Source of the DNA: Phymorhynchus buccinoides
Lineage: Eukaryota > Mollusca > Gastropoda > Neogastropoda > Raphitomidae
Assembly (NCBI GenBank): GCA_017654935.2
Contig: CM065712.1
Location: 16,678,090 to 16,742,089 of the forward strand
Direction of reading: 5' to 3'
DNA length: 64,000 nucleotides
A model generated the notes under the pieces. It saw only the letters and a program-made list of their open reading frames with translations. It was not told the DNA's origin and did not search any database. Positions 4,551-63,962 of this stretch are shown here, in pieces; the first letter of the stretch is position 1, and the number at the start of each line of letters is the position of its first letter. The position numbers and the translations under genes are program-made.

Positions 4551-5760
4551 ACCGATTGAAGAAGCTTCTTGGCGAGAATGCTTGTATGCACGACAGACAA
4601 TACCTGCTCGACGACTGCAGTACGCCACGCGTGACGTGTGTGTGTTTATTCCTTTGCTTTCTTCTTTTCTTATTCCTTCCTTCCTTCCTTCCTAAACGCA
4701 GACCGATGAAGAATATTCTGGGAGTAGCTGTGTGGAGACAGACAGTACCTGCAGCGACTGTCAAACCAGCTGCGTGTAGTCTTGTTTATTCCTTTCTTTC
4801 TTCTTTCTTCCTCTTCTTTTCTGCCTTCCTTCTTCCTTTTCTTCCTTCCTTCCTTCCTAACGACGGACACGATGAGAAGAAGATTCTAGGGAAGAGCTGT
4901 ACGGAGACGAATAACGACAGTACCTTGCAGCGACTGTAAACAGTAAGCTGCGTGAGTTGTTTATTCCATTCTTTCTTCTTTCTTATTTCCTTCTCCTTTC
5001 CTTCCTTCATTTCTTCCTTTCCTAACGAAGACACGAATCGAAGAAGATGCTGGGAGAGCTGTGTGGAGACAGACTGGCGTACCTACAGCGACTGCGTGGA
5101 GTTCATTTATTCCTTTCTTTCTCTTTCTTATTTCCTTTCTTCCTTCCTTGCCTTCTTCCTTCTTACCTTCTAACGATGAAGAAGATTCTGTCATAGCTGT
5201 ACGGATGCATACAGACAGTACCTGCAGCGACTGCGGCGTGAGTTGTTTATTCCTTTCTTTCTTCTATTCTTATTCCTTTTCTTCCTTCCTTTCTTTCTTC
5301 CTTCTTACCTTCTAACGATGAACTAGGATTCTGTGATAGCTGTCCGAGAACAGACGTACCTCAGCGACCTGAACTGCGTGAGTTGTTATTCCTTTCTTGC
5401 TTCGTTCTTCCTTCCTATCCTTCTTACCTTCTACGAAGCACGATAGACGTATATTCTGGAGAGCGTGTGCGACAGACAACTACAATAAGCCACCAGCTAC
5501 GTGAGTTTTTATTCATTTTAGTTCTCTCTTTCTCCCTTCTTCCTTCTTACCTTCTGACGAAGACACGATCAGTAGTTCTGGAGAGCTGTTTGGAGAGCAG
5601 ACTACCTACAGCCACTACGTGAGGTTGTTTATTCATGTTATATTTCTTCTTTCTTTTCTCCCTTCCTTCCTTCCTTTACCTTCTAACGAAACACGATAGA
5701 GGAGATTCTGGGAGGAGCTGTGTGGAGACAGAACAGATACATACAGCACCAGTCTACTGA
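4551..5760 (+). repeat. array of about nine decayed mini-exon copies (ODAD4 LLGEL motif)
   Basis: Units start near 4551, 4700, 4861, 5027, 5174, 5317, 5434, 5562 and 5688. A typical unit is a TTCC-rich tract, AACG(A/C)AG, about 55-70 bp of exon-like sequence, then GCGTGAGTTG and a T-rich spacer. The exon-like part reads KKILGELCGDRQYLQRL as consensus, matching human RQLLGELYVDKEYLEKLL of ODAD4. The first copy reads KKLLGENACMHDRQYLLDD and the fourth KKMLGELCGDRLAYLQRL. Most others carry 1-2 base indels. I cannot say which copy, if any, is spliced into mRNA. Confidence 0.65.
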
Positions 5761-7250
5761 TTTGTTTATTTCCTTTCGTTCTTCTTTCTTCTTTCTTTTG
5801 TTTGTTTGTGTTATTCCTTCCGTTTTTCGCTACTTCATATTTCCATCTTTCTTTTCTTTGGCTTCCGGCTCTGCGACAGTCTTTGTTGTTTATTTTTTCT
5901 TATTATTCTTATCTTGCCTTCTTTTCCTTTTTTCTTTCTTTCTTTGCTTCTTTTTTCTATTCGTTCCTTTTTTTCGTCTTTCGTTTGTTTGATTGTTTGG
6001 TTTTAACCCTTCCTTTCTTCTTTATTCTGTCTTTGTTTTTCTTTTCTTCCATCTGTGTGGATTTTCATTTCTTGTATTTCTTTATTTTATTCGGTCGTCT
6101 TGACTTCCGTTTCTTTCTTTCATGGACATCTTTTTCGTCTTTTTCTTTTTCCTTTCTTTTTCTTCTTATCTTTTCTTTATTTTTCTTCCTTCGTGCTTAT
6201 CCTTTCTGTCGTTTCTCTCTTTGTTCATTTAGCATTTTCCTTCTTCCTTCCTTCCTTCCTTTCGTTCCTTTTTAATTGTTTCCTTTTTTCTTTTCTTCCT
6301 TCCCGCCTTTCTTTGATTTTTGTTTGTTTCTTTCTTCCTTCTTTATTTCCATTTTCCGGTCTTTTTCTCCTTTTCTTTCTTCACCCTTCTTCTGTTCCAT
6401 TCTTTCCTGTCCATCATTCCTTCCTTCCTATTCCTTTCTTTTTCTTCTGGTCTTATGTTTTCTGTCTTCTTTCTACCTGCTTCCCTCTTCCTTCATCTCC
6501 TGTCTCTCTTTTCTCGCCCTTTGCCCCCCTTTCTTTTCTTCTCTTTCTTCCTTTTGTCGTGTCCTTTTTTCCTTCTTTAATTCCTTCCTTTATTCGTTTC
6601 CCGTCATTTCTTCCCTCCTTCCCTCCTTCATTCCGTGCCTTCGCTTATACTTCTTCCCTTTATTATTCTCCTCTGTTCGTGCTGTGCATTTCATCCCTTT
6701 ATTCCACTTTCTTTTTCAACTTCTTCCTTCCTTATCTTTACTTCTCCTAACTATTTTGTTTATCTTCTTCACTACTTGGTCCGCTATCGTTTTTCCCTCT
6801 TCTTCTCCTTTTCTTCATACTCCCTTATCCTTCTCTAGCTTATTCTCCTCTCTCTTACTGTCTTCCTTTCATATCTTCTTTCGTGTGCTCCTTCCTACTT
6901 TCCTCTAAGTTCCTTCACTCTGTATTGTCCTTTGCCGCACTGAATATAGATCGGGCAAAGCTGTGGATTCTGGGTTTGTGACGGTGCTAGGTTTGTTTGT
7001 TTTGTATTTTTGTTTATTCGTTTACATTGGGTTTTTTTTCTTTCTATCTGTCCACGAGTATCTGCCCGAACCGCTTTTATTTCTCTTCCTTTCTTTAGTT
7101 CTTTCCTTCATCTCCCTCTTGTTTCTCCTGTTTCTTCTTCATTTTCTTCTTTCGTTGTTGTTCAGTTTTTTCTTACTTTCATTTGCTTATTCATTCGTTT
7201 GCTTCAACGTTATTTAATCTTGTTTCTATTTCTTCCTGTTTAATATATGT
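5760..7250 (+). repeat. 1.5-kb polypyrimidine tract
   Basis: Almost purine-free plus strand built of TTCC, TTTC and CTTT. It continues the pyrimidine spacers of the mini-exon array. The long open frames here come from low complexity. Confidence 0.95.
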
Positions 7251-10339: not shown

Positions 10340-10460
10340 CGCGTCGGGGGTCGTGGCGGGGGCGGCCGCACGCGGCGTGACGTCATGCGGCTGGCACGTG
10401 AGGGGGTGGACTTCCTCCGCGAGAGGTCGGCACTGTGGGGCCACGCGGCTCAGCTGTCAC
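10340..10460 (+). CDS. possible alternative ODAD4 exon, paralogous to the 13928 exon
   Basis: After GTCGTTGCAG the frame (phase 0, as at 13928) reads DVMRLAREGVDFLRERSALW. This shares 12 of 20 residues with DLAMLADEGLQFLRERSIFW of the 13928 exon. Local GC is much higher than the flanks. The tract before the AG is weak in pyrimidines and the donor is unclear, so the end is approximate. It may be a mutually exclusive exon, a second copy used in the same transcript, or a relic. Confidence 0.5.
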
Positions 10461-13231: not shown

Positions 13232-13614
13232 CTCCTCCCAGCAAGGGGGGTCAAAAGCGGGAGCGGGGGACCTGGCCATCCTCATCATCATCTCATCATC
13301 ATCATCATCACTGTCACTCTCAGTATTACCCAGTCGATGGGGGAAAGGCGGAGCGGGGACCTCCCATGCTGGTCGACGACCATCATCACATCATCATCAT
13401 CCTCATCATCATCACTGTCTCTCTCTCTCTCTCCCATGTTATTACCCAGCGGGGGGCAAGGCGGAGCGGGACCTGGCTGCTGGCCGGGAGGGGCCAATCA
13501 TTATCATCATCATCATTCATTCATCACTGTCTTCTCTCTCTCTCTTCCCATGTATACCCAGCGGGGGCAAGGCGGAGCGGGACCTGGGCCATGCTGGCCG
13601 ACGAGGGGGCCCTG

Positions 13615-13652
<38 letters not shown>

Positions 13653-13858
13653 CTGTCTCTCTCTCTCTCTCCCATGTTATTACCCAGCGGGGGGCAAGGC
13701 GGAGCGGGACCTGGCCATGCTGGTCGACGAAGGCCCTGCTCATCATCATCATCCCATCACCCATCATCATCATCACTGTTCTCTCTCCTCTCTCCCATGT
13801 TATTCAGGGGGGGGCAAGGCGAGAGCGGGACTTGGCATCTGGTGACGAAGGCCTCATC
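13232..13858 (+). repeat. six partial copies of the 13928 exon start with acceptor
   Basis: Copies at about 13232, 13325, 13440, 13553, 13678 and 13800 each hold a CT tract, a CCCATGTTATTACCCAG-like acceptor and 27-65 bp of exon start (GGCAAGGCGGAGCGGGAC). (CAT)n lies between them. Period is about 110-125 bp. The copies break off into CAT repeats and lack the rest of the exon. Confidence 0.9.
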
Positions 13859-13927: not shown

Positions 13928-26023
<12,096 letters not shown>

Positions 26024-47700: not shown

Positions 47701-50700
47701 AAACAATTCACAAAATCCGATAAATGAAAGCAGCTGGCGCATTAGCGTTTGCCGTGATTTCGTATCTGCGGTGTATGCGGCGCCATTTTGTCAGCCGAGT
47801 TGTATGCGCGGTAAAAGTTCTGTGTGTGCAAACTGTGACTAAAAATGAACTGCCACAGCGTTACTTTGTCATGTTTTGTGTTGTGTTGTGTCGTTGTGCA
47901 TAATCCAGTATTTAGTAGGTCCGTTATGGCGAAGATTAGGTCTGTACTGTTATGTGTAGTTTGTGTGTGAGTGCAACATGGGCCATCGAAGTTGCCATCG
48001 GACCCGTTGCCATGACTTTCGATCACGAGTTCGTCTGCTTTTCATCGAGAGATCGATTTGCACGAACTTGACTGCAAAAAGATAAGATTGTGGTCGCATC
48101 TCAACCCCTGAAATCGGGTCGTAAGTCGGAACTCAGGAAAGTCGTATTTGCGGCATAGGATATATAGTGGAATGTGTTCGGGAAGAAAAAAATCGGTCGT
48201 ATGTGAGGAGAAGTCGCATTTACGAGCGTCTTATTAGAGGGGTACCACTGTATTTTCACAACTTCATTTACCCCAGATAGAAAGTCGTTAGAGATACGAG
48301 CTTTTGGTGGAAGGTGGCGGGAAAAATTAGAGTTACTAACTATGTATTAAACTAAAAAATATAAAAAATTCGAGATACGAGGTTTTTGAATTTCACCGAC
48401 GATATCTTTCATTTTGTTGCTTTGATACATGAAAATACCATTTTTGTTGTTGAAACTTCCATAGCAATTCTTGCTGAAATCCTGGCATGTCTAAAACATA
48501 AACTAGCATTCTAGGACTATGACACCAAAAGTTATGACATAATCAATGACATCACACACCCATGGGGGAAGGGGATACAATAAAATGGGGGGTGCAACTG
48601 ACAATAGGAAGCTCCTTAAAGTGCATGAATCCCCTGAAGTCGGAGTGTGGCTGTCCACGTGGCAGGGTAATCAAAAACGCGTCATGTTCTCATCCCTAGC
48701 TGATGCACTTGTACCATAGTGTTCAAGTGCTTCTGTTGTTGAGATGATCCCTGGAGTCTTTTAGCCAGGGTACGACAACAACAACAAAGTGTGCAATAAA
48801 CGACACTAACACGCACACCACTGACCTGACACGACCTTGTACCCTCGTTGTTGAGATGATCCCTGGAGTCTTTTAGCCAGGGTACGCCAACAACAACAAA
48901 CAAAGTGCGTGAAAAACGACACCGATGAGCACCCTAGTCACTGACCTTGTACCCTCGTCGCATCAACGCGTCACACATGAAAAACGACACTGATGAGCAC
49001 CCTAGTCACTGACCTTGTACCCTCGTCGCATCAACGCGTCACACATGAAAAACGACACTGATGAGCACCCTAGTCACTGACCTTGTACCCTCGTCGCATC
49101 AACGCGTCACACATGAAAAACGACACCGATGAGCACCCTAGTCACTGACCTTGTACCCTCGTCGCATCAACGCGTCACACATGAAAAACGACACCGACGA
49201 GCACCCTAGTCACTGACCTTGTACCCTCGTCGCATCAACGCGTCACACATGAAAAACGACACCGATGAGCACCCTAGTCACTGACCTTGTACCCTCGTCG
49301 CATCAACGCGTCACACATGAAAAACGACACCGATGAGCACCCTAGTCACTGACCTTGTACCCTCGTCGCATCAACGCGTCACACATGAAAAACGACACCG
49401 ACGAGCACCCTAGTCACTGACCTTGTACCCTCGTCGCATCAACGCGTCACACATGAAAAACGACACCGATGAGCACCCTAGTCACTGACCTTGTACCCTC
49501 GTCGCATCAACGCGTCACACATGAAAAACGACACCGATGAGCACCCTAGTCACTGACCTTGTACCCTCGTCGCATCAACGCGTCACACATGAAAAACGAC
49601 ACTGATGAGCACCCTAGTCACTGACCTTGTACCCTCGTCGCATCAACGCGTCACACATGAAAAACGACACTGATGAGCACCCTAGTCACTGACCTTGTAC
49701 CCTCGTCGCATCAACGCGTCACACATGAAAAACGACACTGATGAGCACCCTAGTCACTGACCTTGTACCCTCGTCGCATCAACGCGTCACACATGAAAAA
49801 CGACACCGATGAGCACCCTAGTCACTGACCTTGTACCCTCGTCGCATCAACGCGTCACACATGAAAAACGACACCGATGAGCACCCTAGTCACTGACCTT
49901 GTACCCTCGTCGCATCAACGCGTCACACATGAAAAACGACACTGATGAGCACCCTAGTCACTGACCTTGTACCCTCGTCGCATCAACGCGTCACACATGA
50001 AAAACGACACTGATGAGCACCCTAGTCACTGACCTTGTACCCTCGTCGCATCAACGCGTCACACATGAAAAACGACACTGATGAGCACCCTAGTCACTGA
50101 CCTTGTACCCTCGTCGCATCAACGCGTCACACATGAAAAACGACACCGATGAGCACCCTAGTCACTGACCTTGTACCCTCGTCGCATCAACGCGTCACAC
50201 ATGAAAAACGACACCGACGAGCACCCTAGTCACTGACCTTGTACCCTCGTCGCATCAACGCGTCACACATGAAAAACGACACCGACGAGCACCCTAGTCA
50301 CTGACCTTGTACCCTCGTCGCATCAACGCGTCACACATGAAAAACGACACTGACGAGCACCCTAGTCACTGACCTGACACGACCTTGTACCCTCGTCGCA
50401 TCAACGCGTCACACATGAAAAACGACACTGACGAGCACCCTAGTCACTGACCTGACACGACCTTGTACCCTCGTCGCATCAACGCGTCACACATGAAAAA
50501 CGACACTGACGAGCACCCTAGTCACTGACCTGACACGACCTTGTACCCTCGTCGCATCAGCACGTCACACATGACATAACGACACTGACGAGCACCCTAG
50601 TCACTGACCTGACACGACCTTGTACCCTCGTCGCATCAGCACGTCACACATGACATAACGACACTGACGAGCACACTGGTCACTGACCTGACACGACCTT

Positions 50701-53700
50701 GTACCCTCGTCGCATCAGCGCGTCACACATGGCCTTGGCATTGCTCAGCACCTGCTGCTGGTAGTCCTTGAACTCTGGGGTCATGGCCTGAGGGGTCAAG
50801 ATCAAAGGGTCAAGGTTTGAATTTTTTACATTGCCTTGCTATATGTTAGCAAAAAGCCTAAAAAGGGCGAAAAATCAAACAAATAAAAACAATTCTGCTT
50901 ACAGAAAACTTATGAATAGTGTAGAGGAAGAACAGCATGGTGATTTAACCCTTTCACCGCCAGCCATTTCTTAGCCAAAAAATACCATGAAATTTAACCT
51001 GGGTGTTAAACCATTGTGGTGCAAAAATGTGACATTGGCGGTGAAAGGGTTAATACAATCTTTAGTTTGTGATGATAAGTCAGTCAGCTTTCTGCATTAC
51101 AAGCTCAAGTCTATAGTTATGGCAGACATAAATCGCAATGACCGGCATTTGGACAAGCCAGATCAAGCCATCAATGGCCACATTTCAACAGAATGTTCTG
51201 TGTGTGGAAGAGTTGTGCTGTTAGCCAATAACACAGTCAAAAAAAAAACAAAAAAAAATTCAACGAAAATACCCAGCACCTATTAACACCAAAATCCCAA
51301 AAAGATTTGACAAAAAAATGTGCATACGGACACATAACAAGTAAATGAGGACAGGAGAAAGAGTTGGGGGGGGGATCTGTCGGGGTTGCAGAGCTGCGAC
51401 TGTTTAGGCAGATCTTGCGTGCCTCACGCTTTGCCTGCGATGTCTCGATACGGTGCGCCTCGAAGTTGGTGGCTCCATTTGTTACTGACACCACGCCATG
51501 CTGGTCTGTTCTGTGCCAGGGTTTCCCATGAGGAGACATTAACATGGGTGCAACTCCCCAAAAGGAAAAAAAACTGAAAGGCAGGGGTCCAGGGACCCAT
51601 GGCCCCGGCAGGGTACAGGGGCAGAGCCCCGTCGGACGATTCAGGGGGGCAACTTAAGAGAGAGATACAACGAGACAGACAGCTAAAATGAGAGACAGTT
51701 TGAGTCTGATAAGCCTTGTAAAATTAGCACATTGCCTTTTGTAACCTTCCAAGATAGAACAACTAGACTAAGTTCAAAACGCCCCAAAACGCTTGTGGTC
51801 AATGGTTTTTTTAATGAATTACAAAATACTGAAGTTCAGTTTCTGGTCAAATAAAAAATACTGAAATCAGTGTACAAATGAAAGAGTAGCATCCATGCAT
51901 CGATGTTGAAGTTCTGTAGGGACACTATGGGGAAGCAAACTGTAAAAAGAATGTACCTCCCTCAAGGCGACGGCCACGCCGGCAATCTGGTGTTCGTGGG
52001 GCCCCCCCTGCAGCGCGGGGAAGACGGCGTTGTTGATCTTCTTCTCAAAGTCGTACAGGATCTCCTTCCCAGTCTTCTTGTCCACCCCCTTCACCCCTTT
52101 ACGGTAAAAGATCATCCCTGACCTGCCAGAAAAACAACAGTGGAACCTCCCTTGTAAGACCTTCCCTTGTAAGACCTTCCCTTGTAAGACCTTCCCTTGT
52201 AAGACCTTCCCTTGTAAGACCTTCCCTTGTAAGACCTTCCCTTGTAAGACCTTCCCTTGTAAGACCCTCCCTTGTAAGACCCTCCCTTGTAAGACCTTCC
52301 CTTGTAAGACCCTTCCCTTGTAAGACCTTCCCTTGTAAGACCTTCCCTATTAACTCACTGGAGTCATGACGGCAGATGTCTGCCATCACGGTCAGTCTCT
52401 GTTCAGGTCATGACGGCAGACAACTGCCACCTGAATTTTTCCGATTATTTTAGCACCCACTACAAGTAACGCTATTCGAGGGAGCTGAAAGTCAAAGCAC
52501 ACTCATTCATGCTTCGATTGCTTCCCTTAGACCCGTATCTCACAGCCATTTGGGGGCTTATTTTAGCGAGTTTCATCGAGTCACTTAGCAACAGCTGTGT
52601 TCTCTACACAAGCAAAATGGCCAAACAAATCGGAAATTCCATTTTGGATACTTTACTGAGCGTATTTTTTACACAAAGGAGATGAGTAAGCCCACTAACT
52701 GTGTGTGGCATTTTATTTAGTAGACTTGTGCCTTTCTTTTGCAAAGTATTGTTTGTTTCTATAATTATTGATTAATTATTTGGAAGCAATTTTTTTTTAA
52801 AGTAGCCTGAAACGTGCTATTCCTGGGGGTCGACGCGCATCATCTGACTGCATGGGTGCTCCTGGGAAATTTCCAAACTCCTGCAAGGCAGGGGTCCAGT
52901 GGCCACCCAGGCCCCGGCAGAGTGCAGGGACCCTCCAGAGGGTTCCGGGGGGGCAATGCCCCCTGGAAGCTGAAGGGAAACAACAGTTTCCAATGTAATT
53001 GACAGCATCTCGTTGCACTTTCACTTCTGGTTAAACTTCATGACCTCTATAACCGGCAAAATGCATCCTCTCAAATTCTCGTAATCCCGCAACTCTGGCT
53101 CCAGGCCAAAAACAAAATCCTGAAAGCAGGAGCATCCATGTGACTGCAACTCCACTGAGTTAAAGGCCACCAGATCAAATGTCAAAATCACGGGTTTTCC
53201 CTCTTATAGCTGGAAATAAATCTTGTTTTGACCAAGTCTGACTCCCATATAAATGGCCCCAAATTGGAACCGACACATCAGTTTAAAGAGCAGCCTCAAT
53301 TTGAATATGGAGAAAATCGTATGTGGGTCACAGCAACCCAGAAAAAAACAAGGGACTTAATCGTGGTGCGTCACTGGGTCTTTAAAAATACACTGACGCA
53401 CCACGATTAAGTCCCTTGTTTTTTTTTCTGGGTAGCTGTGACCCGCATACAGATGTCCCCAACTTCAAATTGAGGCTGCTCTTTAAAATTATGTTTCGGT
53501 TTGAATTTGGGGGCATTTATATGGGACATCCTGAAAGCAGGGTCATCCATGTGACTGCGACGCCAATGAGTTAAAGGCCACCAGATCAAATGTCAAAATC
53601 ACGGGTTTTCCCTCTTATAGCTGGAAATAAATCTTGTTTTGACCAGGTCTGACTCCCATATAAATGCCCCCAAATTCAAACTGAAACATAATTTTAAAGA

Positions 53701-56700
53701 GCAGCCTCAATTTGAAGTTGGGGACATCTGTATGCGGGTCGCAGCTACCCAGAAAAAAACAAGGGACTTAATCGTGGTGCGTCAGTGTATTTTTAAAGAC
53801 CCAGTGACGCACCACGATTAAGTCCCTTGTTTTTTTCTGGGTTGCTGTGACCCACATACAATTTTCTCCATATTCAAATTGAGGCTGCTCTTTAAACTGA
53901 TGTGTCGGTTTCAATTTGGGGCCATTTATATGGGAGTCAGACTTGTTCAAAACAAGATTTATTTCCAGCTATAAGAGGGAAAACACGTGAAACCCGTGAT
54001 TTTGACACGTGATTGGGTGGATCTTTAACCCTTTCACCGCCAATGTCGCATTTTAGCACCACAGTGATTTAAATACCAATGTCACTAAAAGGCATCAAAT
54101 TGGGGTCTATTACCCACAGACCCTATTGTCTTAGTTTTGGGAAGTAAGGATAGACCTTATTATATATATGTCACAGAAGAATCCCAATATTGCAGATAGA
54201 TTTAATTTGTTCTCTACCCTAGTAAAATTTAATGGACATTTTTGGCTGAAATATGTCTGGCGGTGAAAGGGTTAAGAGACTCCCTCAAAGATGTGACCCA
54301 CAAATTTTTCACCAATTTTCCCCCTTCTTATCCGGACTACCGAGTGTTCACCTTCCAATCTAAGACCTTGAAAAATCATCCCCCAAAGGCCTGAATAGGG
54401 AGGTTCTACAGTGAAACAATATCAAACAACAAAGGACAGGAAAGGACTTAACCCTTTCACCGCCAAAGCTGCATTTTAGCACCACAGTGATTTAACACCT
54501 ATGTCACTAAAAGGCATCAAATTGGGGTCTATTATCCAAAGACCCTGTTGTCTTAGTTTTGGGAAGTAAGGATAGACCTTATTTTATATCTGTCACAGAA
54601 GAATCCCCGATACTGCAGATGGATTCTGTTCCCTACCCAGGTAAATTTCATGGACATTTTCGGTTGAAATATGGTTGGCGGTGAAAGGGTTAATGACTTT
54701 TTTTTCTTCTTCTTCTTCTCCTCCCATTAAGCATCCACAATCAACGGTTTGATTTTTGGTTACAGTTATGGTCGAGGTCGGAAGGTCAAGGGAAAAACCA
54801 AAACAAACAGGGAAAAACACCATACCGGTGCCAATCTACAAACGACATTGACCCAAATTTCCATTTGACATTGACATAAATTTCTGTAAGACCTTGACCC
54901 AAATTTCTGTTTGACTTTGACTCAGATTTCCATTGGACTTTGATCTAAATTTCCATTTGACATTGGCCCAAATTTCCCCAAAAAATTCCGTTTGACATTC
55001 ACCTAACTTTCCATTTGACCAAAAAGATGTTGACCGAAACTTTCATTTGACCTTGATCAAACTTTCCCCCCCAAAAAAATAATTGACTCCCCAAAATTTC
55101 TATATGTATCCATGACCCCGACGTTCGTGCGACCTTGAACCACTAACCGTGGCCCACGGAGGGTCTTGTGCGTGGTGGAGGACACGACGTCGGCATGGTC
55201 GAAAGGGGAGGGAATCACGTCGCCCGCCACCAGCCCAGAGATTTGGACCTCGACCCAAAGTTCCATTGGACCTCGACCAAATTTCCATTTAACTTTGACT
55301 CAAATTTCCATTGGACCATGACCCAAATTTCCATTGGACCTTGACCCAAATTTCCCCCTAAATTTCCGTTAGACCTTGACCCAAATTTCCATTTGACTGA
55401 CCTAAATTTCCGTTAGGTCATGGCCCAAATTTTCATTTGACCTTGACCCAAACTTCCATTTGACATTGACTCAAATGTCCCTAAAAATTCCATTGGACCT
55501 TGACCCCCAAAAAAAGATGTTGACCCAAATTTCCATTCGACCATGATCCAACATATAAAAAAATTTGACCACACAAAATTTCAATAATGTATCCTTGACC
55601 CCAACGTTCACGTGACCTTGACCCACTGACCGCGGCCCGCGGAGGGTCTTGTGCGTGGTGGAGGACACGACGTCGGCGTAGTCGAAAGGGGAGGGAATCA
55701 CGTCGCCCGCCACCAGCCCAGAGATGTGGGACATGTCCGCTAGCATCACCGCCTTCACCTCGTCACAGATCTGCAGCACACACAAACACAGGGGCGCGTG
55801 CACAGGCACACAGATTTACACAAACATGGGTATGAGTACAGGCATACACTGATACAGATTTATAACATACACAAACACAGGGGCGTGTGCACAGATTTAC
55901 ACAAACATGGGTATGAGTATAGGCATACACTGATACAGATCTATAACATACACAAACACAGGGGCGCGTGCACAGGCACACAGATTTACACAAACATGGG
56001 TATGAGTACAGGCATACACTGATACAGATCTATAACATACACAAACACAGGGGCGCGTGCACAGTCACACAGATTTACACAAACATCACCGCCTTCACCT
56101 CGTCACAGATCTGCAGCACACACAAACACAGGGGCGCGTGCACAGGCACACAGATTTGCACAAACATCACCTCGTCACAGACCTACAGCACACACAAACA
56201 CAGGGGCGTGAGCACAGGCACACAGATTTACACAAACATGGGAATGAGTACGGTACACAGATCTACAGCACACACAAACACAGGGGCGCATGCACAGGCA
56301 CACAGATTTGCACAAACATCACCTCGTCACAGATCTACAGCACACACAAACACAGGGGCGCGCGCACAGTCACACAGATTTGCACAAACATCACCGCCTT
56401 CACCTCGTCACAGATCTACTGCATGCAGTCACACAGATTTGCACAAACACTGTTGTTTTTCTTTCCCAATGATATCTCCCGAACCGCTTGACAGAATCGC
56501 TTCAAATTTTGTGTGGTGGTGTGTCACCCTGCGAGGAAGGCATCCGTGCATAAATTACCGCTGCCATGACCATGACCTTGATGCATGACCTTGAAAACCG
56601 AAAATCTTTAAGGGGTCATAACTTCCACACCGTTGGTCTTAAGAGTCTTCAAACTTTGCATGTAGGCGCTTTGGCTTATGGCCGTTCTGATGATGGCATA

Positions 56701-59700
56701 CTGATCAAGGTCAAGATGAAGTCTCAGGGAGATCGGTAGGCCTTGATTTCTTTTAAATTTTGTTTGCTATTGAACCCAAGCAAAGTTATAGTGTAATGTG
56801 TGTATTCACTGACTTTCGTTTTCTTTTTCTTTTCTTTCTCCTCTCTTCTGCTTCTTGTGTTCTATTACCGTATTTTACGGACTATAAGGAGATACTTTTT
56901 TCCTAGACTGAGACCCCTGCACCTTATAATGTGACTGACCATATAGTAAGAAACTATAACAACAACATCTAATTTTGTGCAACATTTTCGGGGGGTGCCT
57001 TGTAGTTCGTAAAATACGGTACTTCTATATAAAGAAGTTGGTCACCACCACAGAAGAAGAAGAAGAAGGAGAAAAAGAAAGACTTGCGCAAACAAACAAA
57101 CAAAGGTTGTCATTCCTTTCACTGCCAATGTCGCATTTTAGCACCACAATGGTTTAACACCCATGTCATTAAAAGGCATCCTATCCAGACCTGTTATCTG
57201 AAGACCCTATTTTCTTAATTTTGGGAGGTAAGGACAGGCCTAATGTTATATATGTCACAGAGGAATTCGCAATATCGCAGAAATATTTTTTTCTCTACCC
57301 AGTTTTGCTTAATGGTATTTTTTTGGCTGAAACATGGCTGGCGGCGAAAGGGTTATAGCAACATGGAATCAGGCAGAGACAGGAACCCCGGCCCACTCAC
57401 CTCTCTGTACGCCTTGTAGTCGAGCAGTCTGGAGTAGGCCGTGGTGCCCGCGATGATCAGACGAGGCCGGAACAAGATGGCCGTCTCCCGAAGCTTCCCG
57501 TAGTCGATGAAACCCGTCTTTGGCTGGAAACAAACATAATATCGTCGGTGAAATTCAAAAACCATGTATCTCGATATTTTTGTGTGTTTGTTTTTGGTCC
57601 CATCTTCTGGGCCGTACAGTGGCGGTGCTCCCACGCCGCTCATTCCGAGTCCCAACTCGCAGCCACACCTCCACACATAAATATTTCTTTAGTTAGTCAG
57701 CTCTCTCATTTTTCCCGCCACTTTCCACCAAAAGCTCGTATCTCTAACGACTTTCTATCTGGGGTAAATGAGGATGTGAAAATAGAAGAAAAATTCGTTA
57801 AGTCCCAAATTCATATCTAGTTAAGGACAAAAACCTGGTATCTTCGTTCTTTTCAAGCATAGAGAAAATATGTTTCAAAGTAATTTATTTTTACTGACTT
57901 CTTTTGCTTTAAAGTAATTTTAGCAAAATGCAGGACTAAACTCACAATGTCTTGAACAACATATTCATCATAGTTAATCAATTCTGGTCAACGCGGTTAA
58001 TTTTCAAAGTTTTTTTCATTTTTCTCAAAACTACCAAAAAGTGAGATACGAGGTTTTTTAATTTCACTGACGATATCCAGTTCACATTACTGGAGAAAGG
58101 TGGCAGAGTGGTCAAGATGTTCGCCTGCCAAATGTAATGCGTGACTGCAGTGTGAATGACCCGGGTTTGAATCGCGGCCTCCTCGCCCTTTCTTTCTAGT
58201 TCGACAGGAAAATCGAACTGAACGTCCAGTCCTTCGGATGGGGACTTAAAGCTTGTCTGACCCGTGCGCTTTACGCACGTAAAAATCTCACGGCAGTTGA
58301 AAGTCGATAAGAGCAGGGAGAAATCCCGCTGCCTGGTATGGCCAAATTGATAGCTAGGTTTTAATACTTACAAAGAAGGGCAATGTCTCGGAGAAGTGGG
58401 TCTGATGTGGGAGGGAGTCTTATAAGGGAGGTTCCACTGTGGTCTGTCAAATAATCATTCATGCACACAGACAGAGAAACGCACAGCCCTCGTTCCCATG
58501 CCAATGTACTTCTGTTCTTACAGAAGTGTAAGTACTTACAAAACAAGAGGCAAAGCCTTCAAGGCTCACTCGAACAGGCACATGTGGGACAACAACAAAC
58601 AAAGATTGAGGGGGGGGGGGGGGTCTAAAGTACAAGACTGCCAATAAAACTTAAAAGTACAAATGAAACTATCGTTAATGGATACAACTAAAAAATATAT
58701 AAAAAAGTGCCCGTGCCGAGAATCAGACCCGGAACCATTAGCATGACAGACAGACACTCTACCAATGAGCTATGGAGGCTTTCAGTGTTGATGAGTTTCT
58801 TAACTCATGTTGCCTGTTGAATACTCTCTAACCCACTAATCTAAAATGTTATCTGTTTGCTATCTGTTTACAGTGTTGTTTTAAGTATTTAATTATTCAA
58901 ATAATTATTGTTTGAAAGCTTGCATACACATCTATATGTGCAACATTTGAACAATATGACTTCTATTTCCCGAGAAAATGCCAGCGTTAAAGTTAGGAGA
59001 TTAGACCACGGACGCAACACACATACATACAACCGAACAACTATCTATAGACTCCCTTCGTGTTAACAGTTCATACAAAGCATTGAAAAATGGGACTTTG
59101 GGTTCAGAGGGTTGATCCAGTAGAACCTCCCTTATAAAGACCTCCCATAATTCAGGTGTTAACCTGAATTTCTCTTTTGTTGATATTAAAGCATACTTGA
59201 ACTTGAACTTCGTTAACACAAGTGAGCCAAAACGGTGACTTACGTCCAGTCTGTAGGGCATGGACTCGAAGTACAGCGACGTAGCTGACACACGCTTGGT
59301 GTCCGTCATGAACCCATGAGTCAAACTGAGAAGAAAAAACACACGAAAATTAAACATTAGAGAGTGTGAAAACACTTTTAATGTCAGACAAACACACACA
59401 CTGAGGGGTGTGTGTGTGTGTTCAGGAGTGCAGCGATGATGATGATAATAATAATGATGATGATGATGACCACAACAACGACAGCGACTCGCTGTCCCTC
59501 ATCTGGCAACTCCATCAGCATATGTGTGTGCGTGTGTGGGGGGGAGTTGTGGGGGGGAGGGGTGTTCAGGAGTGCAGCCATGATCATGATGATAATGATA
59601 ATGATGATGATGATGACCACCACAACAACAATGACTCACTGTCCCCCATCCAGCAACTCCATCAGCATATGTGTGTGCGTGTCCCCGGGGGGGTGTTCAG

Positions 59701-60843
59701 AAGTGCAGCCATGATGATGATAATGATGATAGCGACAACATGAAAGGTGGCAGAGTGGTTAAAACGTTCGCCTGCCAAAAGTAATGCGCGACTGCTACGT
59801 GAGTGACACGGGTTCGAATCCGCGGCCTCGCCCTTTCTTTCTAGTTTGACAGGAAAATCGAACTGAACGTCGAGTCCTTCGGATGGGGACTTAATGCTAG
59901 TCTGACCCATGCGCTTTACGCATGTAAAAATCCCACAGCAATTGGAAATCGGCAAGAGTATGGAGAAATCCTGCTGCCTGGTATGGCTAAATAGATAGCT
60001 AGATTTTCCAAGTGTGTCCACACACCCTCCTTACCCTGTGCCTCCCCCCATCCCCCCTAAAAAAAACAAATTGGGTAGGCGCTGCACTTGCGGCAACATT
60101 ATCTCCGGGGGAGAGCAACCCGAATTTCACAGAGATAAGTCTCTGTGACTAGAATATTCCAAAGAATCAAGACAAAAACAACAACAACAATGACAACGAC
60201 AACCACTCACTGTCCCCCATCCGGCAAATCCAGCCCCATCAGTCTGTCGTGGGGATTCAAGAGCGCCGTGAACACTGCGAAGTTGGCGGGACTGCCAGAG
60301 TAAGGCTGCACGTTCACACCCCATTTCTCGGGGTCCAGGCGGAACGCTTCAAGCGCCCTCTGCTGACAGAGACGCTCCACCTCGTCGATGTGAATGTTGC
60401 CTCCGTAGTACCTGCCAACAAAACAAACAAAAAACACGCGGCTAAACAGTGGATGTTCCGCCCAAGTCAGGATTAATTTGGGTCTTTATGGCTGCCCACA
60501 TGGCGGGGTAATCAAAAACAGGTCACATACGTAATGTTCTCATCCCTAGCTGTTACATTTGTACCATAGTGTTCAAGTGCTTCGACTGTTGGGGCAATCC
60601 CTGGAGTCTTTAACTTAAGCCAGGGTACGACAACAAATAATTAATAAAATAATTAATAAAATAATAAATAATGAATAATGCTTACTTAGCGCATAATCTT
60701 ACTAAGCAACTCAATGCGCTTTTCACTCACCATTCGTACAAACATTTCTAACAAACTGGTTCACGTATCCTCACCATACATCTCTATGAAAATGAATACA
60801 TTAGAGAATGCATTGCATATAATCATAACACAACACACTAACA

Positions 60844-60875
<32 letters not shown>

Positions 60876-63800
60876 CCCCAACCATCCCCTCGTGTGTGGG
60901 GGGGAGTTGAACATAACAATAACATGGGTGCAACTACACAAAATGAAAAAAACCGGGGTCTAGGGGTAATGTCCCCCTGCAGCTGAAGAAAAAAAAAGAT
61001 TTATGAAGGTATTTTAGGCTGCTTTTTCCACAATTTATACAAATGCTTAATAATGTTTTGACAATCAGAATCTTCCATATAATTAAGGCACATCTGTCTA
61101 CATGATCTTGTAGAGTCTAAAATCTAATATTAAAAATGAACATAGCAATAAATAATACTACAAAATTTTAACACTCAAAGTCTTCCCTACCTGGCCCCAG
61201 GGTAGCCCTCGGAATACTTGTTGTTGAGACATGAGCCCACGGCCTCTAGCACTGCGCGACTGGCAAAGTTCTGCAAAACATGACATGAGTTAAATAGTGG
61301 TGACACCTTGACCACCGTAAATCACCACTAAAACTTAACCCCTTGACTGCCATATAACGTATCACGTACTGACTCGATGACATCACTGATGACGTCATCA
61401 GATGAAGAGGAATAACTCTGATATGCTGGCTTAACACAATCAAGAGTTACATCCCCAGACCATTTTGCCAGATTGGCTCTATCAGTTGTCTTTTTCATGG
61501 CATGATTTGTCCAATGATTTTTTCTTTCATTTTCTCTGGCAGTGAAGGGGTTAAAGGACTTTAACACTTCCATGACGGGAGCCTTCAAATGAAGGCCTAG
61601 CCTGGAGTTTCCATTGAATGACAAGACAATTCCACCCAGTAGCGACTTTTCAAATACTTTTTTAAAGGATGTCAAACATGGGATTGCTTTATTTAGCTTA
61701 CATTTAAATATATAAAATTTAGCCAATAGTATGATCAGATCCATGACTTTATCTGTTTTTTGGTTTTGTTTCCATCCTAGCAAAACTAGGGTTTCTGAGA
61801 GACTAAAATTCTGTGTATGGTTGCAAACGTCATGAATCCAAGAAATGAAGTTTGTCCAAAATACCTGAGCATGGTTACAAATCCAAAAAAGGTGGACTTA
61901 AGTTTCATCTTCTATGCCACAAAAAGTACATGTTTGAGAATGAGGAATTTTACATAAAAACAAGTATCTTTCAGTGGGCAGGAGTCTATGTAATACTCTC
62001 AACTGAAACCACCGCAGTTGACAATCAGTAGCAGTTTTGAAATGCTTTATGAATATTTTTTCCCATTTCAAGACTGCCTGTGGATATCGCTGTTGCCATT
62101 TTGTTACACTGGGTGGTGTAGTATCACAGTCTGTCATACTCTGGTATATGGTTTTAGTAGGTGTAAATTTAATTAAACTCCAAACTTTAGAATAGTCATT
62201 AGCTGAGTTATTACACAATTCTATCTCCAGGGATTCTCTATACTTAGTCACAGCTCTAACTATGCCACTGTATACAAGAAAGTTCGTTATAACCATAGGA
62301 TATGCATTTCTAAAGCTATTAAACGTTAGAAAATTCCCTTCTGTGTCAACAAGAACTTTAATGGTGTTAATGTCATTTTCTGACCATTCTCTTAAATATA
62401 CTGTTTTCATATCCCTGATGATATTGTTATTGAAGTGAATACTTTCAGCATGAAATTCTTTGTGATTTTGTAGGCTTGCATTTTTCATACATTATTTTAT
62501 AATGTTTTAATACATCTACCCAAAACAAGTTATCTGGAGCCCGGAGTTTCAATCATAGGTGATACGGTCTAAGCAGCAGGCCTGCCTACCTCCTGTCGCA
62601 GCTTCCAGGAACAAACTGCTTAAAAACCAGGGACAGAGACTTATTTCCAGGGGCAAACATCGCGATGTCATGCACCATGAAATATATTTCGTGATCTAGC
62701 AAAATGTCTGTGACTCTGGATACTTTGGGTAGTCTTTTTGTTGCTTTTCGGTGCCAACATGCTTCTAAGTTCTATACTCAAGATTCTTTTGGTGTTCAGT
62801 AACTTAACAGTAAGAAAATTTCAACAGTGCCTGCATTGTCTTGGGTGTTCCTGTGTTCAATAGTGACGTCAGCTAACAAGACAAGCCACTACTCTACAAA
62901 ATTTTGATTCTACTCAGTTTCCAGGGACACAAAAGTTGATTCCAGGGACAGGGTGCCCGTTTTAACTGTTTCCAGGGACAAATACCCCTTAGTGGGGATG
63001 GTAGGCAGCCCTGGTTGAGTAAAGGGCCTACAACTGAACTACACTAAAACCTCCAAGCAGCATCAAACAACTCTGAGGCGATGAGTTCCAGGCAGTGGGC
63101 CTGACTGACCTTCTCCCTCTCTCCCTCTTCACGATAGCCATCAGCTCCCTGTCTTGCCCAGGATATATCCCTACTCTACACTAAGATCACAATACCTCAG
63201 AGGCGATGAGCTCCAGGCTGTGTGTCTGTCTAAACTTCTCCCTCTTGACGACAGACATCAACTGGCTGCCTTGCCCAGGGCACATCCCTACTCTACACTA
63301 AGATCACAATACCTCAGAGGCGATGAGCTCCAGGCCGTGTGTCTGCCTGAACTTCTCCCTCTTCACCATGCTGGCCATCAGCTGGCTGCCTTGCCAAGGG
63401 CACAGCCCTACTCTACACTAAGATCACTTTACAATACATCAGAGGCGATCAGCTCCAGGCAGTGTGTCTGCCTGAACTTCTCCCTCTTCACCATGCTGGC
63501 CATCAGCTGGCTGCCTTGCCAAGGGCACAGCCCTACTCTACACTAAGATCACTTTACAATACCTCAGAGGCGATCAGCTCCAGGCCGTGTGTCTGTCTAA
63601 ACTTCTCCCTCTTCACCATGCTGGCCATCAACTGGCTGCCTTGCAAAGGGCACAGCCCTACTCTACACTAAGATCACTTTACAATACCTCAGAGGCGATC
63701 AGCTCCAGGCAGTGGGCCTAACTGACGTTCTCCCTCTTCACCATGGACATCAGCTGGCTGCCTTGCCCAGGGTACATCCCTACTCTACACTAAGATTAAT

Positions 63801-63962
63801 TAACAATACCTCAGAGGCGATGAGCTCCAGGCCGTGTGTCTGCCTGAACTTCTCCCTCTTGACGATGGCCATCAGCTGGGGGTCAGCGGTGTCCAGGGCC
63901 TCCTGACCGTTGACCACAGGGCTGGACTGCAGGGCCGCCACATTGTGACACCCCCGCACCGC
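41849..63962 (-). CDS. SHMT2: serine hydroxymethyltransferase, mitochondrial type (11 exons, 5' exon missing)
   Basis: PLP enzyme that converts serine and tetrahydrofolate to glycine and 5,10-methylene-THF. Exons (coding order): 63810-63962, 61191-61270, 60211-60411, 59244-59325, 57401-57523, 55631-55770, 51957-52122, 50688-50787, 45699-45854, 45367-45474, 41849-41976. All have GT-AG borders and agreeing phases; together they give 478 codons, stop TGA. Signatures present: [53 protein letters not shown] with the Schiff-base Lys, [32 protein letters not shown] and the FPMPGF end. The segment [11 protein letters not shown]...NGQEAL before the core resembles the mitochondrial human form, so an upstream exon should hold a targeting peptide. 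No catalytic residue is missing. Five of its introns carry unusual copies of exon edges or repeats close to exons. Confidence 0.97.
41985..42336. repeat. (ATCA)n/(GATC)n arrays around a pogo-like fragment
   Basis: AATC and GATC repeats on both sides of a T1 fragment at 42116-42188. Confidence 0.95.
42337..42505. mobile_element. pogo-like MITE, family T1
   Basis: CAGTGGAACCTCTCTTATAA to GGAGGTTCCACTG, flanked by TA. Confidence 0.85.
42528..42735. mobile_element. fold-back MITE
   Basis: GCCTGCCACACTACATACGA pairs with GTAGTGTAGCAGGC; inner GCGATGCGATTGTGACGATG pairs too. Confidence 0.85.
42760..45000. other. SHMT2 intron, repeats only
   Basis: AT-rich. A partial SINE S1 end at 44095-44175 (minus), a poly-G at 44196-44207 and GT arrays at 44500-44740. 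No further exon is missing between the two SHMT2 exons it separates, since their phases match. Confidence 0.8.
45367..45474 (-). CDS. SHMT2: SHMT2 exon j (SPALTSRG)
   Basis: The acceptor is TTGTCGACAG and the donor GACCA|GTGAGTAC. It encodes [20 protein letters not shown] and the following helix. (ATG)n repeats lie just before the acceptor. Confidence 0.96.
45480..45660. repeat. (CAT)n next to the SHMT2 exon j acceptor
   Basis: Interrupted CATCATCAT repeats begin 10 bp from the acceptor. Confidence 0.95.
45699..45854 (-). CDS. SHMT2: SHMT2 exon i ([20 protein letters not shown])
   Basis: The acceptor is CCCTTCCCAG and the donor GACTAG|GTCAGTG. It encodes [40 protein letters not shown] and MTPGGLRL. 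Confidence 0.97.
46228..46735. repeat. dispersed repeat R3 copy
   Basis: Matches 51541-51900 (GGGGTCCAGG, CCCCGTCGGACGATTCAGGG, GATAAGCCTTGTAAAATTA). A partial copy lies near 45925-46010. Confidence 0.8.
47162..48250. mobile_element. 1.09-kb pogo-like element, non-autonomous
   Basis: CAGTGGTACCCCTCTAATAA to TTATTAGAGGGGTACCACTG, flanked by TA. No transposase frame inside. Confidence 0.8.
48639..48903. repeat. dispersed repeat R1, one full and one partial copy
   Basis: Full copy at 48639-48790 and a second end fragment at 48849-48903. Between them lies a piece of the exon h unit (CTGACCTGACACGACCTTGT). Confidence 0.75.
48900..50687 (-). repeat. 68/78-bp satellite of about 25 copies of SHMT2 exon h end with donor
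   Basis: On the minus strand each unit carries GACGCGTTGATGCGACGAGG, GTACAAG, then GTCAGTGAC and about 30 bp of intron. That is the last part of exon h plus its donor. Twenty-one units spaced 68 bp lack the 10 bp GTCGTGTCAG. The four or so units nearest the exon are 78 bp and keep it, as the real exon does. Units differ mainly at C/T positions in GACACYGAYGAGCACC (plus strand), and the variants recur in blocks. Confidence 0.95.
50688..50787 (-). CDS. SHMT2: SHMT2 exon h ([14 protein letters not shown])
   Basis: The acceptor is GACCCCTCAG|GCC and the donor GTGTCAG|GTCAGTGAC. It encodes [20 protein letters not shown] and [13 protein letters not shown]. Reading past the donor gives GGT CAG TGA, an immediate stop. 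Its 3' edge seeds the 68-bp array downstream. Confidence 0.96.
50945..51053. mobile_element. short piggyBac-like MITE, family P1
   Basis: Both TTAA ends kept (TTAACCCTTTCACCGCC / GGCGGTGAAAGGGTTAA), interior deleted to 109 bp. Confidence 0.88.
51541..51900. repeat. dispersed repeat R3 copy
   Basis: As 46228-46735. A 100-codon open frame just before it (minus, 51237-51545) is unassigned. Confidence 0.8.
51957..52122 (-). CDS. SHMT2: SHMT2 exon g ([20 protein letters not shown])
   Basis: The acceptor is TTTTTCTGGCAG and the donor GGGAG|GTACAT. The 55 codons include [25 protein letters not shown]-derived 15-bp minisatellite ends only 15 bp upstream of this exon. Confidence 0.97.
52138..52350. 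repeat. 15-bp minisatellite grown from a pogo-like MITE end
   Basis: Starts CAGTGGAACCTCCCTTGTAA, then about 13 units of GACCTTCCCTTGTAA. Confidence 0.92.
52350..53158. other. SHMT2 intron, little seen
   Basis: A repeat R3 relative at about 52880-53120 (GGCAGGGGTCCAG, GGGGGGGCAATGCCCCCTGG). Nothing else. Confidence 0.6.
53160..54018. repeat. composite palindrome, four arms in alternating orientation
   Basis: Segments 53160-53395 and 53573-53795 are direct copies. 53396-53545 and 53796-54018 are their reverse complements (AAGGGACTTAATCGTGGTGC and GCACCACGATTAAGTCCCTT). Confidence 0.92.
54025..54275. mobile_element. piggyBac-like MITE, family P1
   Basis: TTAACCCTTTCACCGCC to GGCGGTGAAAGGGTTAA. 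Confidence 0.92.
54448..54693. mobile_element. piggyBac-like MITE, family P1
   Basis: TTAA at both ends. A degraded T1 fragment lies between this and the previous copy (54355-54415). Confidence 0.92.
54841..55560. repeat. irregular minisatellite, GACCCAAATTTCCATTTGAC
   Basis: About 25 degenerate units of 22-30 bp with TTGACCCAAATTTCC cores lie on both sides of the exon f donor-edge copy. No coding signal. Confidence 0.85.
55140..55245 (-). repeat. partial copy of SHMT2 exon f end with donor
   Basis: About 105 bp matches exon f from [14 protein letters not shown] to HKTLRGPR, with D instead of Y at FDHADVV. The donor is ACG|GTTAGTGG. It lies downstream of the real exon inside a minisatellite of GACCCAAATTTCCATTTGAC units. 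Confidence 0.92.
55631..55770 (-). CDS. SHMT2: SHMT2 exon f (active-site lysine)
   Basis: The acceptor is GTGCTGCAG|ATC and the donor GCCGCG|GTCAGTGG. It encodes [19 protein letters not shown] and [12 protein letters not shown] with the PLP lysine. Copies of both its edges lie nearby: the donor edge at 55140-55245 and acceptor edges at 56088-56418. Confidence 0.97.
55780..56450 (-). repeat. tandem array with four copies of SHMT2 exon f start and acceptor
   Basis: Units with ACACAAACACAGGGGCGCGT and CACAGATTTACACAAACAT fill the stretch. At 56088, 56166, 56326 and 56389 they include the first 15-27 bp of exon f (ATCTGTGACGAGGTGAAGGC on minus) with its TGCTGCAG acceptor or variants TGCTGTAG and TGCAGTAG. 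Confidence 0.9.
56867..57021. mobile_element. family C1 MITE
   Basis: TACCGTATTTTACGGACTAT to TTCGTAAAATACGGTA. Confidence 0.85.
57110..57356. mobile_element. piggyBac-like MITE, family P1, left end decayed
   Basis: CCTTTCACTGCCAATGTCGC at the left and GGCGGCGAAAGGGTTAT at the right, 45 bp from SHMT2 exon e. Confidence 0.8.
57401..57523 (-). CDS. SHMT2: SHMT2 exon e ([20 protein letters not shown])
   Basis: The acceptor is GTTTCCAG|CCA and the donor AGAGAG|GTGAGTG. The 41 codons include [20 protein letters not shown], a standard SHMT segment. Confidence 0.97.
58092..58361 (+). mobile_element. tRNA-headed SINE S1
   Basis: A box GGTGGCAGAGTGGTCAAG at 58099, B box GGGTTTGAATCG, then the S1 body (CCTTCGGATGGGGACTTAAA). 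The 3' part is cut by a T1 fragment (58372-58440). Confidence 0.85.
58708..58779 (-). tRNA. tRNA-like sequence, GTC anticodon loop, probably a pseudogene
   Basis: On minus it begins GCCTCCATAGCTCATTGGTA. The D arm pairs (GCTC/GAGT) and the T arm pairs (CCGGG/CTCGG). The anticodon loop reads CTGTCAT. The anticodon stem and lower acceptor stem do not pair well. A T run follows. Either a decayed tRNA-Asp-like gene or a SINE head. Confidence 0.45.
59244..59325 (-). CDS. SHMT2: SHMT2 exon d (LTHGFMTD)
   Basis: The acceptor is TTTTCTTCTCAG and the donor TGGAC|GTAAGTC. It encodes [20 protein letters not shown] and MPYRLD. Confidence 0.97.
59408..59735. repeat. (GT)n/(GAT)n compound array
   Basis: Three units of GTGTGT, TTCAGGAGTGCAGC, (GAT)n, CCACAACAAC and the exon c edge. 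Confidence 0.9.
59490..59670 (-). repeat. two partial copies of SHMT2 exon c end with donor
   Basis: At 59488-59520 and 59635-59666 the plus strand repeats CACTGTCCCCCATCCAGCAA-like sequence. This is the exon end GATGGGGGACA with GTGAGT on the minus strand. The copies sit within units of GTGTGTGT, TTCAGGAGTGCAGC, (GAT)n and CCACAACAACAA. Confidence 0.8.
59741..60155 (+). mobile_element. tRNA-headed SINE S1, nearly full
   Basis: A box GGTGGCAGAGTGGTTAAAAC, B box GGTTCGAATCC at 59811, then a body ending with TCACAGAGATAAGTCTCTGT. Confidence 0.88.
60211..60411 (-). CDS. SHMT2: SHMT2 exon c ([16 protein letters not shown])
   Basis: The acceptor is TTGGCAG|GTAC and the donor GGGGACA|GTGAGTGG. 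It encodes [37 protein letters not shown] and GLDLPDGG. It ends with CA of a His codon that the next exon completes, giving the family's GGHLTHG. Confidence 0.97.
60478..60632. repeat. dispersed repeat R1 copy
   Basis: GCGGGGTAATCAAAAACAGG to CAGGGTACGACAAC. A C run of about 21 lies at 60860-60880, and an R3 fragment at 60925-61020. Confidence 0.7.
61191..61270 (-). CDS. SHMT2: SHMT2 exon b ([17 protein letters not shown])
   Basis: The acceptor is TTTTGCAG|AAC and the donor GCCAG|GTAGGG. It encodes [20 protein letters not shown] and EGYPGA, ending with two bases of Arg. Confidence 0.96.
61335..61554. mobile_element. piggyBac-like MITE, family P2
   Basis: TTAACCCCTTGACTGCC to GGCAGTGAAGGGGTTAA, directly beside the LINE end. 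Confidence 0.82.
61560..62488 (-). pseudogene. 5'-truncated L1/Tx1-like LINE ORF2 C-terminus
   Basis: Minus frame from 62488 reads [20 protein letters not shown] and [10 protein letters not shown], then a TAA at 61898. The same frame continues [20 protein letters not shown] and [20 protein letters not shown]. These are the post-RT region motifs of L1/Tx1-like ORF2 (FQ.R.LHRILPTN..L, C.FC...ET..HLFW). Only one stop is seen in about 290 codons, so the insertion is fairly young. It lies in the intron between SHMT2 exons a and b. Confidence 0.82.
62500..63070. other. SHMT2 intron, no feature seen
   Basis: Contains three diverged CCAGGGACA motifs (62625-62975) but no frame or clear element. Confidence 0.5.
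63073..63765 (-). repeat. six partial copies of SHMT2 exon a end with donor
   Basis: Copies near 63073, 63196, 63313, 63439, 63562 and 63689 repeat about 75 bp of exon end (AGGCAGACACACGGCCTGGA-like) and the CTCTGAGGTATTG donor, with a spacer containing CTACTCTACACTAAGATCAC on the plus strand. Period is about 117-127 bp. Confidence 0.93.
63810..63962 (-). CDS. SHMT2: SHMT2 exon a (N-terminal arm, GLELIASE)
   Basis: The acceptor is CTTTGTCAG|GCGG and the donor TCTGAG|GTATTG; phase 0 at both ends. It encodes the end of the leader-like region and [19 protein letters not shown]. Six partial copies of its 3' end follow in the intron. Confidence 0.95.

What the first reader, a model, noticed from the sequence alone, without database searches (positions are those of the whole stretch)
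4551..63810. Exon edges with their splice sites are copied in tandem in two unrelated genes
Seven arrays in ODAD4 and SHMT2 each copy one edge of an exon with its acceptor or donor: 4.55-5.76, 13.23-13.86, 19.54-20.46, 48.9-50.69, 55.14 with 56.09-56.42, 59.49-59.67 and 63.07-63.77 kb. Except at 4.55 kb, copies hold about 15-105 bp of exon and never a whole larger exon. Acceptor-edge copies lie upstream of the exon and donor-edge copies downstream, which is what tandem duplication across the junction produces. The result is runs of decoy splice sites beside real ones. I do not know a named class for this. The null model is that minisatellites arise everywhere here and are noticed only where they include exon sequence; pure intergenic minisatellites at 35.8 and 36.3 kb support that null.
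Basis: partly seen in the sequence, partly recalled or inferred. Interest (0 to 1): 0.88.

Follow-up and report, generated by a model that had tools for sequence, protein, structure and literature searches.

The report
Repeated splice-site arrays in snail genes
In two unrelated genes of a sea snail, short pieces spanning the border between exon and intron have been copied in rows inside the introns; the same kind of structure was described in lancelets under the name 'mirages', so it is a known oddity seen here in a mollusc rather than a new one.

Summary
The window is from a caenogastropod (SHMT2 best match Babylonia areolata, 85%). Of 35 splice-site exon edges that I annotated in SHMT2 and ODAD4, 8 (on 6 exons) have direct copies in the neighbouring intron: 53 decoy copies, 49 with AG or GT kept (my count). 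Copies carry 6 to 99 bp of exon; acceptor copies lie upstream, donor copies downstream. The array at 4.55 kb repeats an ODAD4-exon-like unit nine times, but I found no intact authentic copy. The class has a name: 'mirages', tandem duplications of exon/intron boundaries in amphioxus Adh3, globin, TnC and PGBD5 genes (PMC3087553, PMC3902484; passages). Best mechanism: one chance tandem duplication across the junction, then minisatellite expansion; the decoys are presumably ignored by splicing (no RNA seen). Base by base, edges are not duplicated more often than noncoding probes (8/35 against 333/1418). Counted as families, edges are over-represented (8 of 22, 1.23 expected), but on a hand-made list in a window chosen for this feature. 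A genome-wide test was not possible: all eight genome-search requests did not complete.

The parts
63810..63962 (-). SHMT2 exon SH1 (real), donor GAG|GTATTG
   Evidence: tblastn with P0001; splice sites
63066..63757 (-). Array of 6 copies of the SH1 donor edge (50-70 bp exon plus intron, unit about 125 bp); GT kept in 5 of 6
60211..60411 (-). SHMT2 exon SH3 (real), donor ACA|GTGAGT
59475..59681 (-). 2 copies of the SH3 donor edge (about 41 bp exon, about 80% identity, unit 147 bp); GT kept in 1 of 2
55631..55770 (-). SHMT2 exon SH6 (real), copied at both edges
55854..56436 (-). 8 copies of the SH6 acceptor edge (6-27 bp exon, units 72-89 bp); AG kept in 7 of 8
55092..55246 (-). 1 copy of the SH6 donor edge (99 bp exon, 57 bp intron; ACG|GTTAGT), set between stretches of a 23-bp minisatellite
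50688..50787 (-). SHMT2 exon SH8 (real), donor CAG|GTCAGT
48799..50652 (-). 26 copies of the SH8 donor edge: 4 units of 78 bp, 21 of 68 bp and one outlier at 48.8 kb; GT kept in 26 of 26
13928..14259 (+). ODAD4 exon ODA (real)
13288..13854 (+). 5 copies of the ODA acceptor edge (44-53 bp exon, unit about 120 bp with CAT tracts); AG kept in 5 of 5, one of them off by a base in the alignment
19824..20020 (+). ODAD4 exon ODD (real), copied at both edges
19517..19736 (+). 2 copies of the ODD acceptor edge (55-56 bp exon, unit about 142 bp); AG kept in 2 of 2
20127..20457 (+). 3 copies of the ODD donor edge (54-57 bp exon); GT kept in 2 of 3, both weaker than the real donor
4548..5773 (+). 9 diverged copies of an ODAD4-exon-like unit (consensus MKKILGELCGDRQYLQRL plus a GTGAGT-like donor and TTCC-rich intron); authentic exon not identified; left out of the counts

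Best explanation
These are 'mirages': minisatellites whose unit spans an exon/intron junction. Step 1 (inferred): a local tandem duplication, about 70-155 bp long, happened to span a splice junction. Because the exon body must stay joined to one copy, the spare copy ends up in the intron: upstream for an acceptor, downstream for a donor. Step 2 (shown by the sequence, most clearly in SH8): spare copies multiplied as an ordinary minisatellite, with blocks of units duplicated together. Step 3 (inferred): the spliceosome goes on using the authentic site beside the full exon, so the decoys are tolerated and decay neutrally. They probably have no function, but they are raw material for shifted splice sites or new introns.
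For: Direct copies only, at 8 of 35 edges, and for these eight edges no hit further than 3 kb away. Inner breakpoints agree among most of the copies printed (up to six per array), as expected from one founding duplication; ODA ends vary beside a CAT tract. The SH8 array read outward has unit types [25 protein letters not shown], with repeated blocks such as EEEDD, typical of minisatellite turnover. All 11 SHMT2 exons of the window are intact and match Babylonia. Pooling the per-array counts (only copies with at least 10 bp mapped on each side), exonic parts differ from the real exon at 72 of 1397 sites and intronic parts at 130 of 1618, ratio 0.64 (0.89 without SH8); with the real exon constrained, neutral copies should give 0.5 to 1. 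One SH1 copy carries a stop and ODA copies carry indels. Published mirages share the anatomy: units of 10-72 and 150-160 bp, either exon edge, AG/GT in many copies, regular mRNA.
Against: No reads, RNA or second individual were available, so neither the arrays nor the disuse of the decoys was verified. Family counts suggest more edge arrays than random seeding gives, which plain chance duplication does not explain. In 6 of 8 arrays the exonic part is better conserved than the intronic part, which would also fit conversion from, or constraint on, the copies. Several decoy donors score as high as the real donor, so disuse is not obvious from sequence.
Confidence: 0.78

Rival explanations
1. Exon edges are true hot spots of tandem duplication in this genome (for example from a GC step, chromatin, or transcription- or splicing-linked breaks), so mirages form much more often there than elsewhere.
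For: By families, 8 of 22 include an edge against 1.23 expected (6 of 1,000,000 simulations reach 8); with a shorter list, 8 of 18 against 0.97 (0 of 200,000); in genic DNA only, 8 of 16 against 1.83 (P 5e-5), and counting exons rather than edges 6 of 14 against 1.63 (P 0.0017).
Against: Base by base there is no excess: 8/35 edges against 333/1418 noncoding probes (p = 1.0), or 176/1117 outside edge arrays and microsatellites (p = 0.25); 13 of 107 probes inside exons also have local copies. The family list was curated by hand, the window was chosen because of this feature, and four of the edges are two pairs on single exons.
Confidence: 0.3
2. The arrays are functional: decoy acceptors and donors tune splicing or alternative exon ends, as the minisatellite of the human IFI6 gene provides splice donors.
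For: 49 of 53 decoys keep AG or GT; some decoy donors equal or exceed the real one by a recalled weight matrix (4 of 6 in SH1, 1 of 2 in SH3, 1 of 1 in SH6; 5 of 26 equal and 21 slightly lower in SH8). In IFI6 two downstream repeat units are reported as donors (PMC4526556, passage).
Against: A stop and indels in copies; divergence fits neutral copies; the two ODD decoy donors are much weaker than the real one. The amphioxus cases are reported not to disturb splicing.
Confidence: 0.08
3. Assembly artefact: read errors or mis-joined haplotypes have inflated or created the arrays.
For: The 4.55 kb and 13.3 kb arrays are rich in indels; one amphioxus globin mirage was wrongly assembled in a draft genome.
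Against: Exons beside the arrays are intact; SH8 units differ by ordered variants and block duplications; eight edges with different units are affected.
Confidence: 0.08
4. Remains of exon duplication by a transposable element or by retro-copying.
For: Dispersed repeats are present in the window.
Against: The copies include intron sequence across the junction and, for these eight edges, lie within 3 kb on the same strand.
Confidence: 0.01

Closest known systems
'Mirages' of amphioxus: Adh3 (Canestro et al. 2002, not held, known here through citation), globins BflGb6 and BflGb9 (PMC3087553, abstract and passages), TnC and PGBD5 (PMC3902484, one passage)
   Same: Minisatellite-like direct duplications of an exon/intron boundary, at either edge, tens to about 160 bp per unit, many copies keeping AG/GT, gene otherwise intact, signs of array turnover.
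   Different: Here in a mollusc; up to 26 copies; eight edges in two unrelated genes within 64 kb, two exons hit at both edges; no RNA data and no second haplotype.
[quoted passage not shown] 1995, title seen in a reference list; use of repeat units as donors from a passage of PMC4526556)
   Same: A tandem array containing donor sites next to an exon.
   Different: In IFI6 repeat units are reported as used donors; here no use is known.
Intron gain by tandem duplication with proto-splice sites (abstract of PMC2891723 seen; Gao and Lynch 2009 and Zhuo et al. 2007 by title in a reference list only)
   Same: Tandem duplication near splice sites as a source of new splice sites.
   Different: Here the spare copies lie in an existing intron; no new intron is shown.
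Internal tandem repeats modifying gene structure in human segmental duplications (PMC2812944, passages)
   Same: Minisatellite-length repeats, some at exon/intron boundaries, that may change splicing.
   Different: There repeats are contained in exons or gene copies of recent human paralogues; here the units span single splice junctions of unrelated genes.

Membership tests
Mirages (boundary-spanning minisatellites) | Repeat unit spans an exon/intron boundary and holds both exon and intron sequence | tested here: met
   8 of 35 edges; exon and intron lengths per copy. One of three ODD donor copies stops 3 bp short of the junction
Mirages (boundary-spanning minisatellites) | Copies are direct, tandem or near-tandem, beside the authentic exon | tested here: met
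   (no local inverted hits at 35 edges)
Mirages (boundary-spanning minisatellites) | Authentic exon remains intact | tested here: met
   SHMT2 exons in frame; ODAD4 exons ODA and ODD open and similar to bivalve ODAD4. Unresolved for the 4.55 kb array
Mirages (boundary-spanning minisatellites) | Many copies keep AG/GT but regular mRNA is made | not testable with these tools
   Sites: 49 of 53 kept. RNA: none available
Mirages (boundary-spanning minisatellites) | Length instability between haplotypes or cells | not testable with these tools
   Only one haplotype; block duplications in SH8 suggest turnover
Used multi-donor minisatellite (IFI6 type) | Repeat units serve as splice donors in transcripts | not testable with these tools
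   No transcript data
Intron gain by tandem duplication | A new intron position absent from relatives | not tested
   Relatives' gene structures were not at hand

The most novel reading that the evidence does not exclude
In this snail, and perhaps in neogastropods generally, splice junctions are preferred sites of tandem duplication, so that about a fifth to a quarter of exon edges carry a mirage. That would be a mutational process aimed at exon edges and a steady source of decoy splice sites, arrived at independently of amphioxus.
Probability: 0.25. Interest if true: 0.72.

Novelty: new member of a known kind. Interest (0 to 1): 0.42.

Why it matters
It takes a little-known structure described in lancelets to a mollusc, at high local density. 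If the density holds across the genome, these species would show the raw material of intron gain in the making: recent duplications of splice sites whose use can be read directly from long RNA reads. It also warns gene annotators, because decoy exon edges can mislead splice-site prediction.

Tried and rejected
The decisive genome-wide rate could not be measured.

A base-wise comparison of edges with noncoding probes gave no excess. I report it beside the family-based test, which does, because arrays with many copies inflate the base-wise background and a hand-made family list may inflate the other. The family lists leave out microsatellites and the 4.55 kb array; the list also leaves out the 57-bp coding duplication at 24.7 kb, which includes.

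Search for an authentic exon in the 4.55 kb array found none by eye with clean frame and in-phase sites, and no further copy on the plus strand of the first 30 kb at the threshold used.

Junction microhomology was looked at by eye; without the ancestral sequence nothing firm can be said. Retro-copy, transposon and inverted-repeat origins were considered and set aside. Rfam gave no match at gathering scores; ARAGORN gave no tRNA.

Papers: searches in the open-licence library showed no title or abstract reporting boundary-spanning minisatellites in molluscs; listings 18 and 21 were capped (15 of 37 and 15 of 212), and 47 and 48 returned nothing. Most subscription papers are not in that library. 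Passages of a gastropod hemocyanin paper (PMC7931591) discuss intron gains, not such arrays. Canestro 2002 and Gao and Lynch 2009 are not held.

Full report
What the window is. A joined SHMT2 protein read from the minus strand matches Babylonia areolata at 85%, Batillaria at 81%, Nucella at 80% and Littorina at 79%; the best 120 of 7999 scored proteins were listed and none is close enough to be the same species. Babylonia is a neogastropod. The window is therefore from a caenogastropod, probably a neogastropod. SHMT2 has 11 exons here, all in frame. On the plus strand, exons at 13.9, 17.3, 18.3 and 19.8 kb match bivalve ODAD4, and three distinct PDB sequences named ODAD4 or TTC25 match a joined query. 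The exon at 21.9 kb matches only weakly (E 0.31); those at 10.3 (E 1.7) and 16.1 kb and the long last one from 22.97 kb rest mainly on open frames and splice sites. The names SH1-SH11 and ODx, ODA, ODA2, ODB-ODF are mine.

The arrays. With 80-bp probes (60 exon, 20 intron) at 35 edges, 8 have local same-strand copies and none has local inverted ones. They are the SH1, SH3, SH6 and SH8 donors and the SH6 acceptor (5 of 21 SHMT2 edges), and the ODA acceptor and the ODD acceptor and donor (3 of 14 ODAD4 edges; split). Mapping each copy gives 53 decoys: 6, 2, 1 and 26 for the SH1, SH3, SH6 and SH8 donors, 8 for the SH6 acceptor, and 5, 2 and 3 for the ODA acceptor, ODD acceptor and ODD donor. Of these, 49 keep the AG or GT, or 23 of 27 without SH8. 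These are my counts from the table, leaving out the one row per array that is the authentic intron. In the ODA array one AG is displaced by a base in the alignment.

The 4.55 kb array differs. Its nine copies share a unit whose consensus encodes a stretch like oyster ODAD4, followed by a GTGAGT-like donor and TTCC-rich intron. Every copy shows indels against the consensus, and by eye none has a clean frame joined to in-phase splice sites. It is probably the same kind of array, possibly of a whole small exon, but it is left out of the counts.

How it arose. Among the copies printed (up to six per array) most share an inner breakpoint, for example CATGTG in SH8, CCAGCTG or CCAGTTG in SH1 and TGGCAGAC or TGGCCGAC in ODD. 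This points to one founding duplication per array. In SH8, 4 decoy units of 78 bp next to the exon are followed by 21 of 68 bp that lack ten bases; read outward the types are [25 protein letters not shown], with duplicated blocks. That is minisatellite turnover. The shorter units still carry a donor, AAG|GTCAGT. Orientation needs no special cause: only the copy joined to the exon body can stay in use.

Do the copies matter? Adding up the eight arrays (copies with at least 10 bp mapped on each side), 72 of 1397 exonic and 130 of 1618 intronic sites differ between copies and the authentic edge. Since the authentic exon is constrained, neutral copies should give a ratio between 0.5 and 1. It is 0.64, and 0.89 without SH8. 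Exonic parts are more alike in 6 of 8 arrays and less alike in SH3 and ODA. One SH1 copy has a stop and ODA copies have indels. Nothing here calls for selection on the decoys. Some decoy donors are as strong as the real one by a recalled matrix, so their disuse, if true, must come from exon context. No RNA was available.

Are exon edges special? But there each array counts as often as it has copies. Counting families once, 8 of 22 local direct-repeat families include an edge, with 1.23 expected if seeds fell anywhere (6 in a million simulations); an earlier, shorter list gave 8 of 18 with 0.97 expected. Within genic DNA it is 8 of 16 with 1.83 expected (P 5e-5), and by exon 6 of 14 with 1.63 expected (P 0.0017). 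I compiled the list, left out microsatellites and the 4.55 kb array, and the window was singled out for this feature. I take the excess as a lead, not a result.

What is known. [quoted passage not shown] in BflGb6 units are 81-100% identical and number 6 or 3 by haplotype; regular mRNA splicing is reported, and the authors suggest that such arrays create introns (PMC3087553, abstract and passages). The term goes back to work on Adh3 (Canestro et al. 2002, not held). PGBD5 and TnC of lancelets are further cases (PMC3902484, one passage). My searches (some listings capped) showed none in molluscs within an open-licence library. In human IFI6, repeat units are reported to be used as donors (PMC4526556, passage).

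Verdict. Real, and a new member of a known kind, to my searches not yet reported from molluscs. The part worth pursuing is the density: eight edges in 64 kb.

Noticed in passing
14240-14280: The ODA donor lies in a 5-bp tandem repeat (CAGGTCAGGTCAGGTCAGGTCA), so the start of the donor is itself repeated in steps of five bases.
   Followed up: no
10340-10455: An exon-like stretch (RRDVMRLAREGVDFLRERSALW) resembling ODAD4 exon ODA ([22 protein letters not shown]), with an acceptor in the same phase; possibly an older exon duplicate.
   Followed up: partly
24667-24785: A 57-bp in-frame tandem duplication (19 residues, 2.1 copies) inside the long last ODAD4 exon.
   Followed up: no
41292-41830: A G-rich array (about 53-bp unit, C-rich on the gene strand) begins about 20 bases past the SHMT2 stop codon, so probably in its 3' untranslated region.
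   Followed up: no
52148-52348: A 15-bp repeat (13 copies, 97% matches) ends about 26 bases before the SH7 acceptor without including exon sequence.
   Followed up: no
53081-54690: Two neighbouring pairs of long direct repeats (offsets about 411 and 422 bp), perhaps one transposon family.
   Followed up: no
35769-36716: Two noncoding minisatellites (31-bp x 15 and 34-bp x 12) lying side by side between the genes.
   Followed up: no
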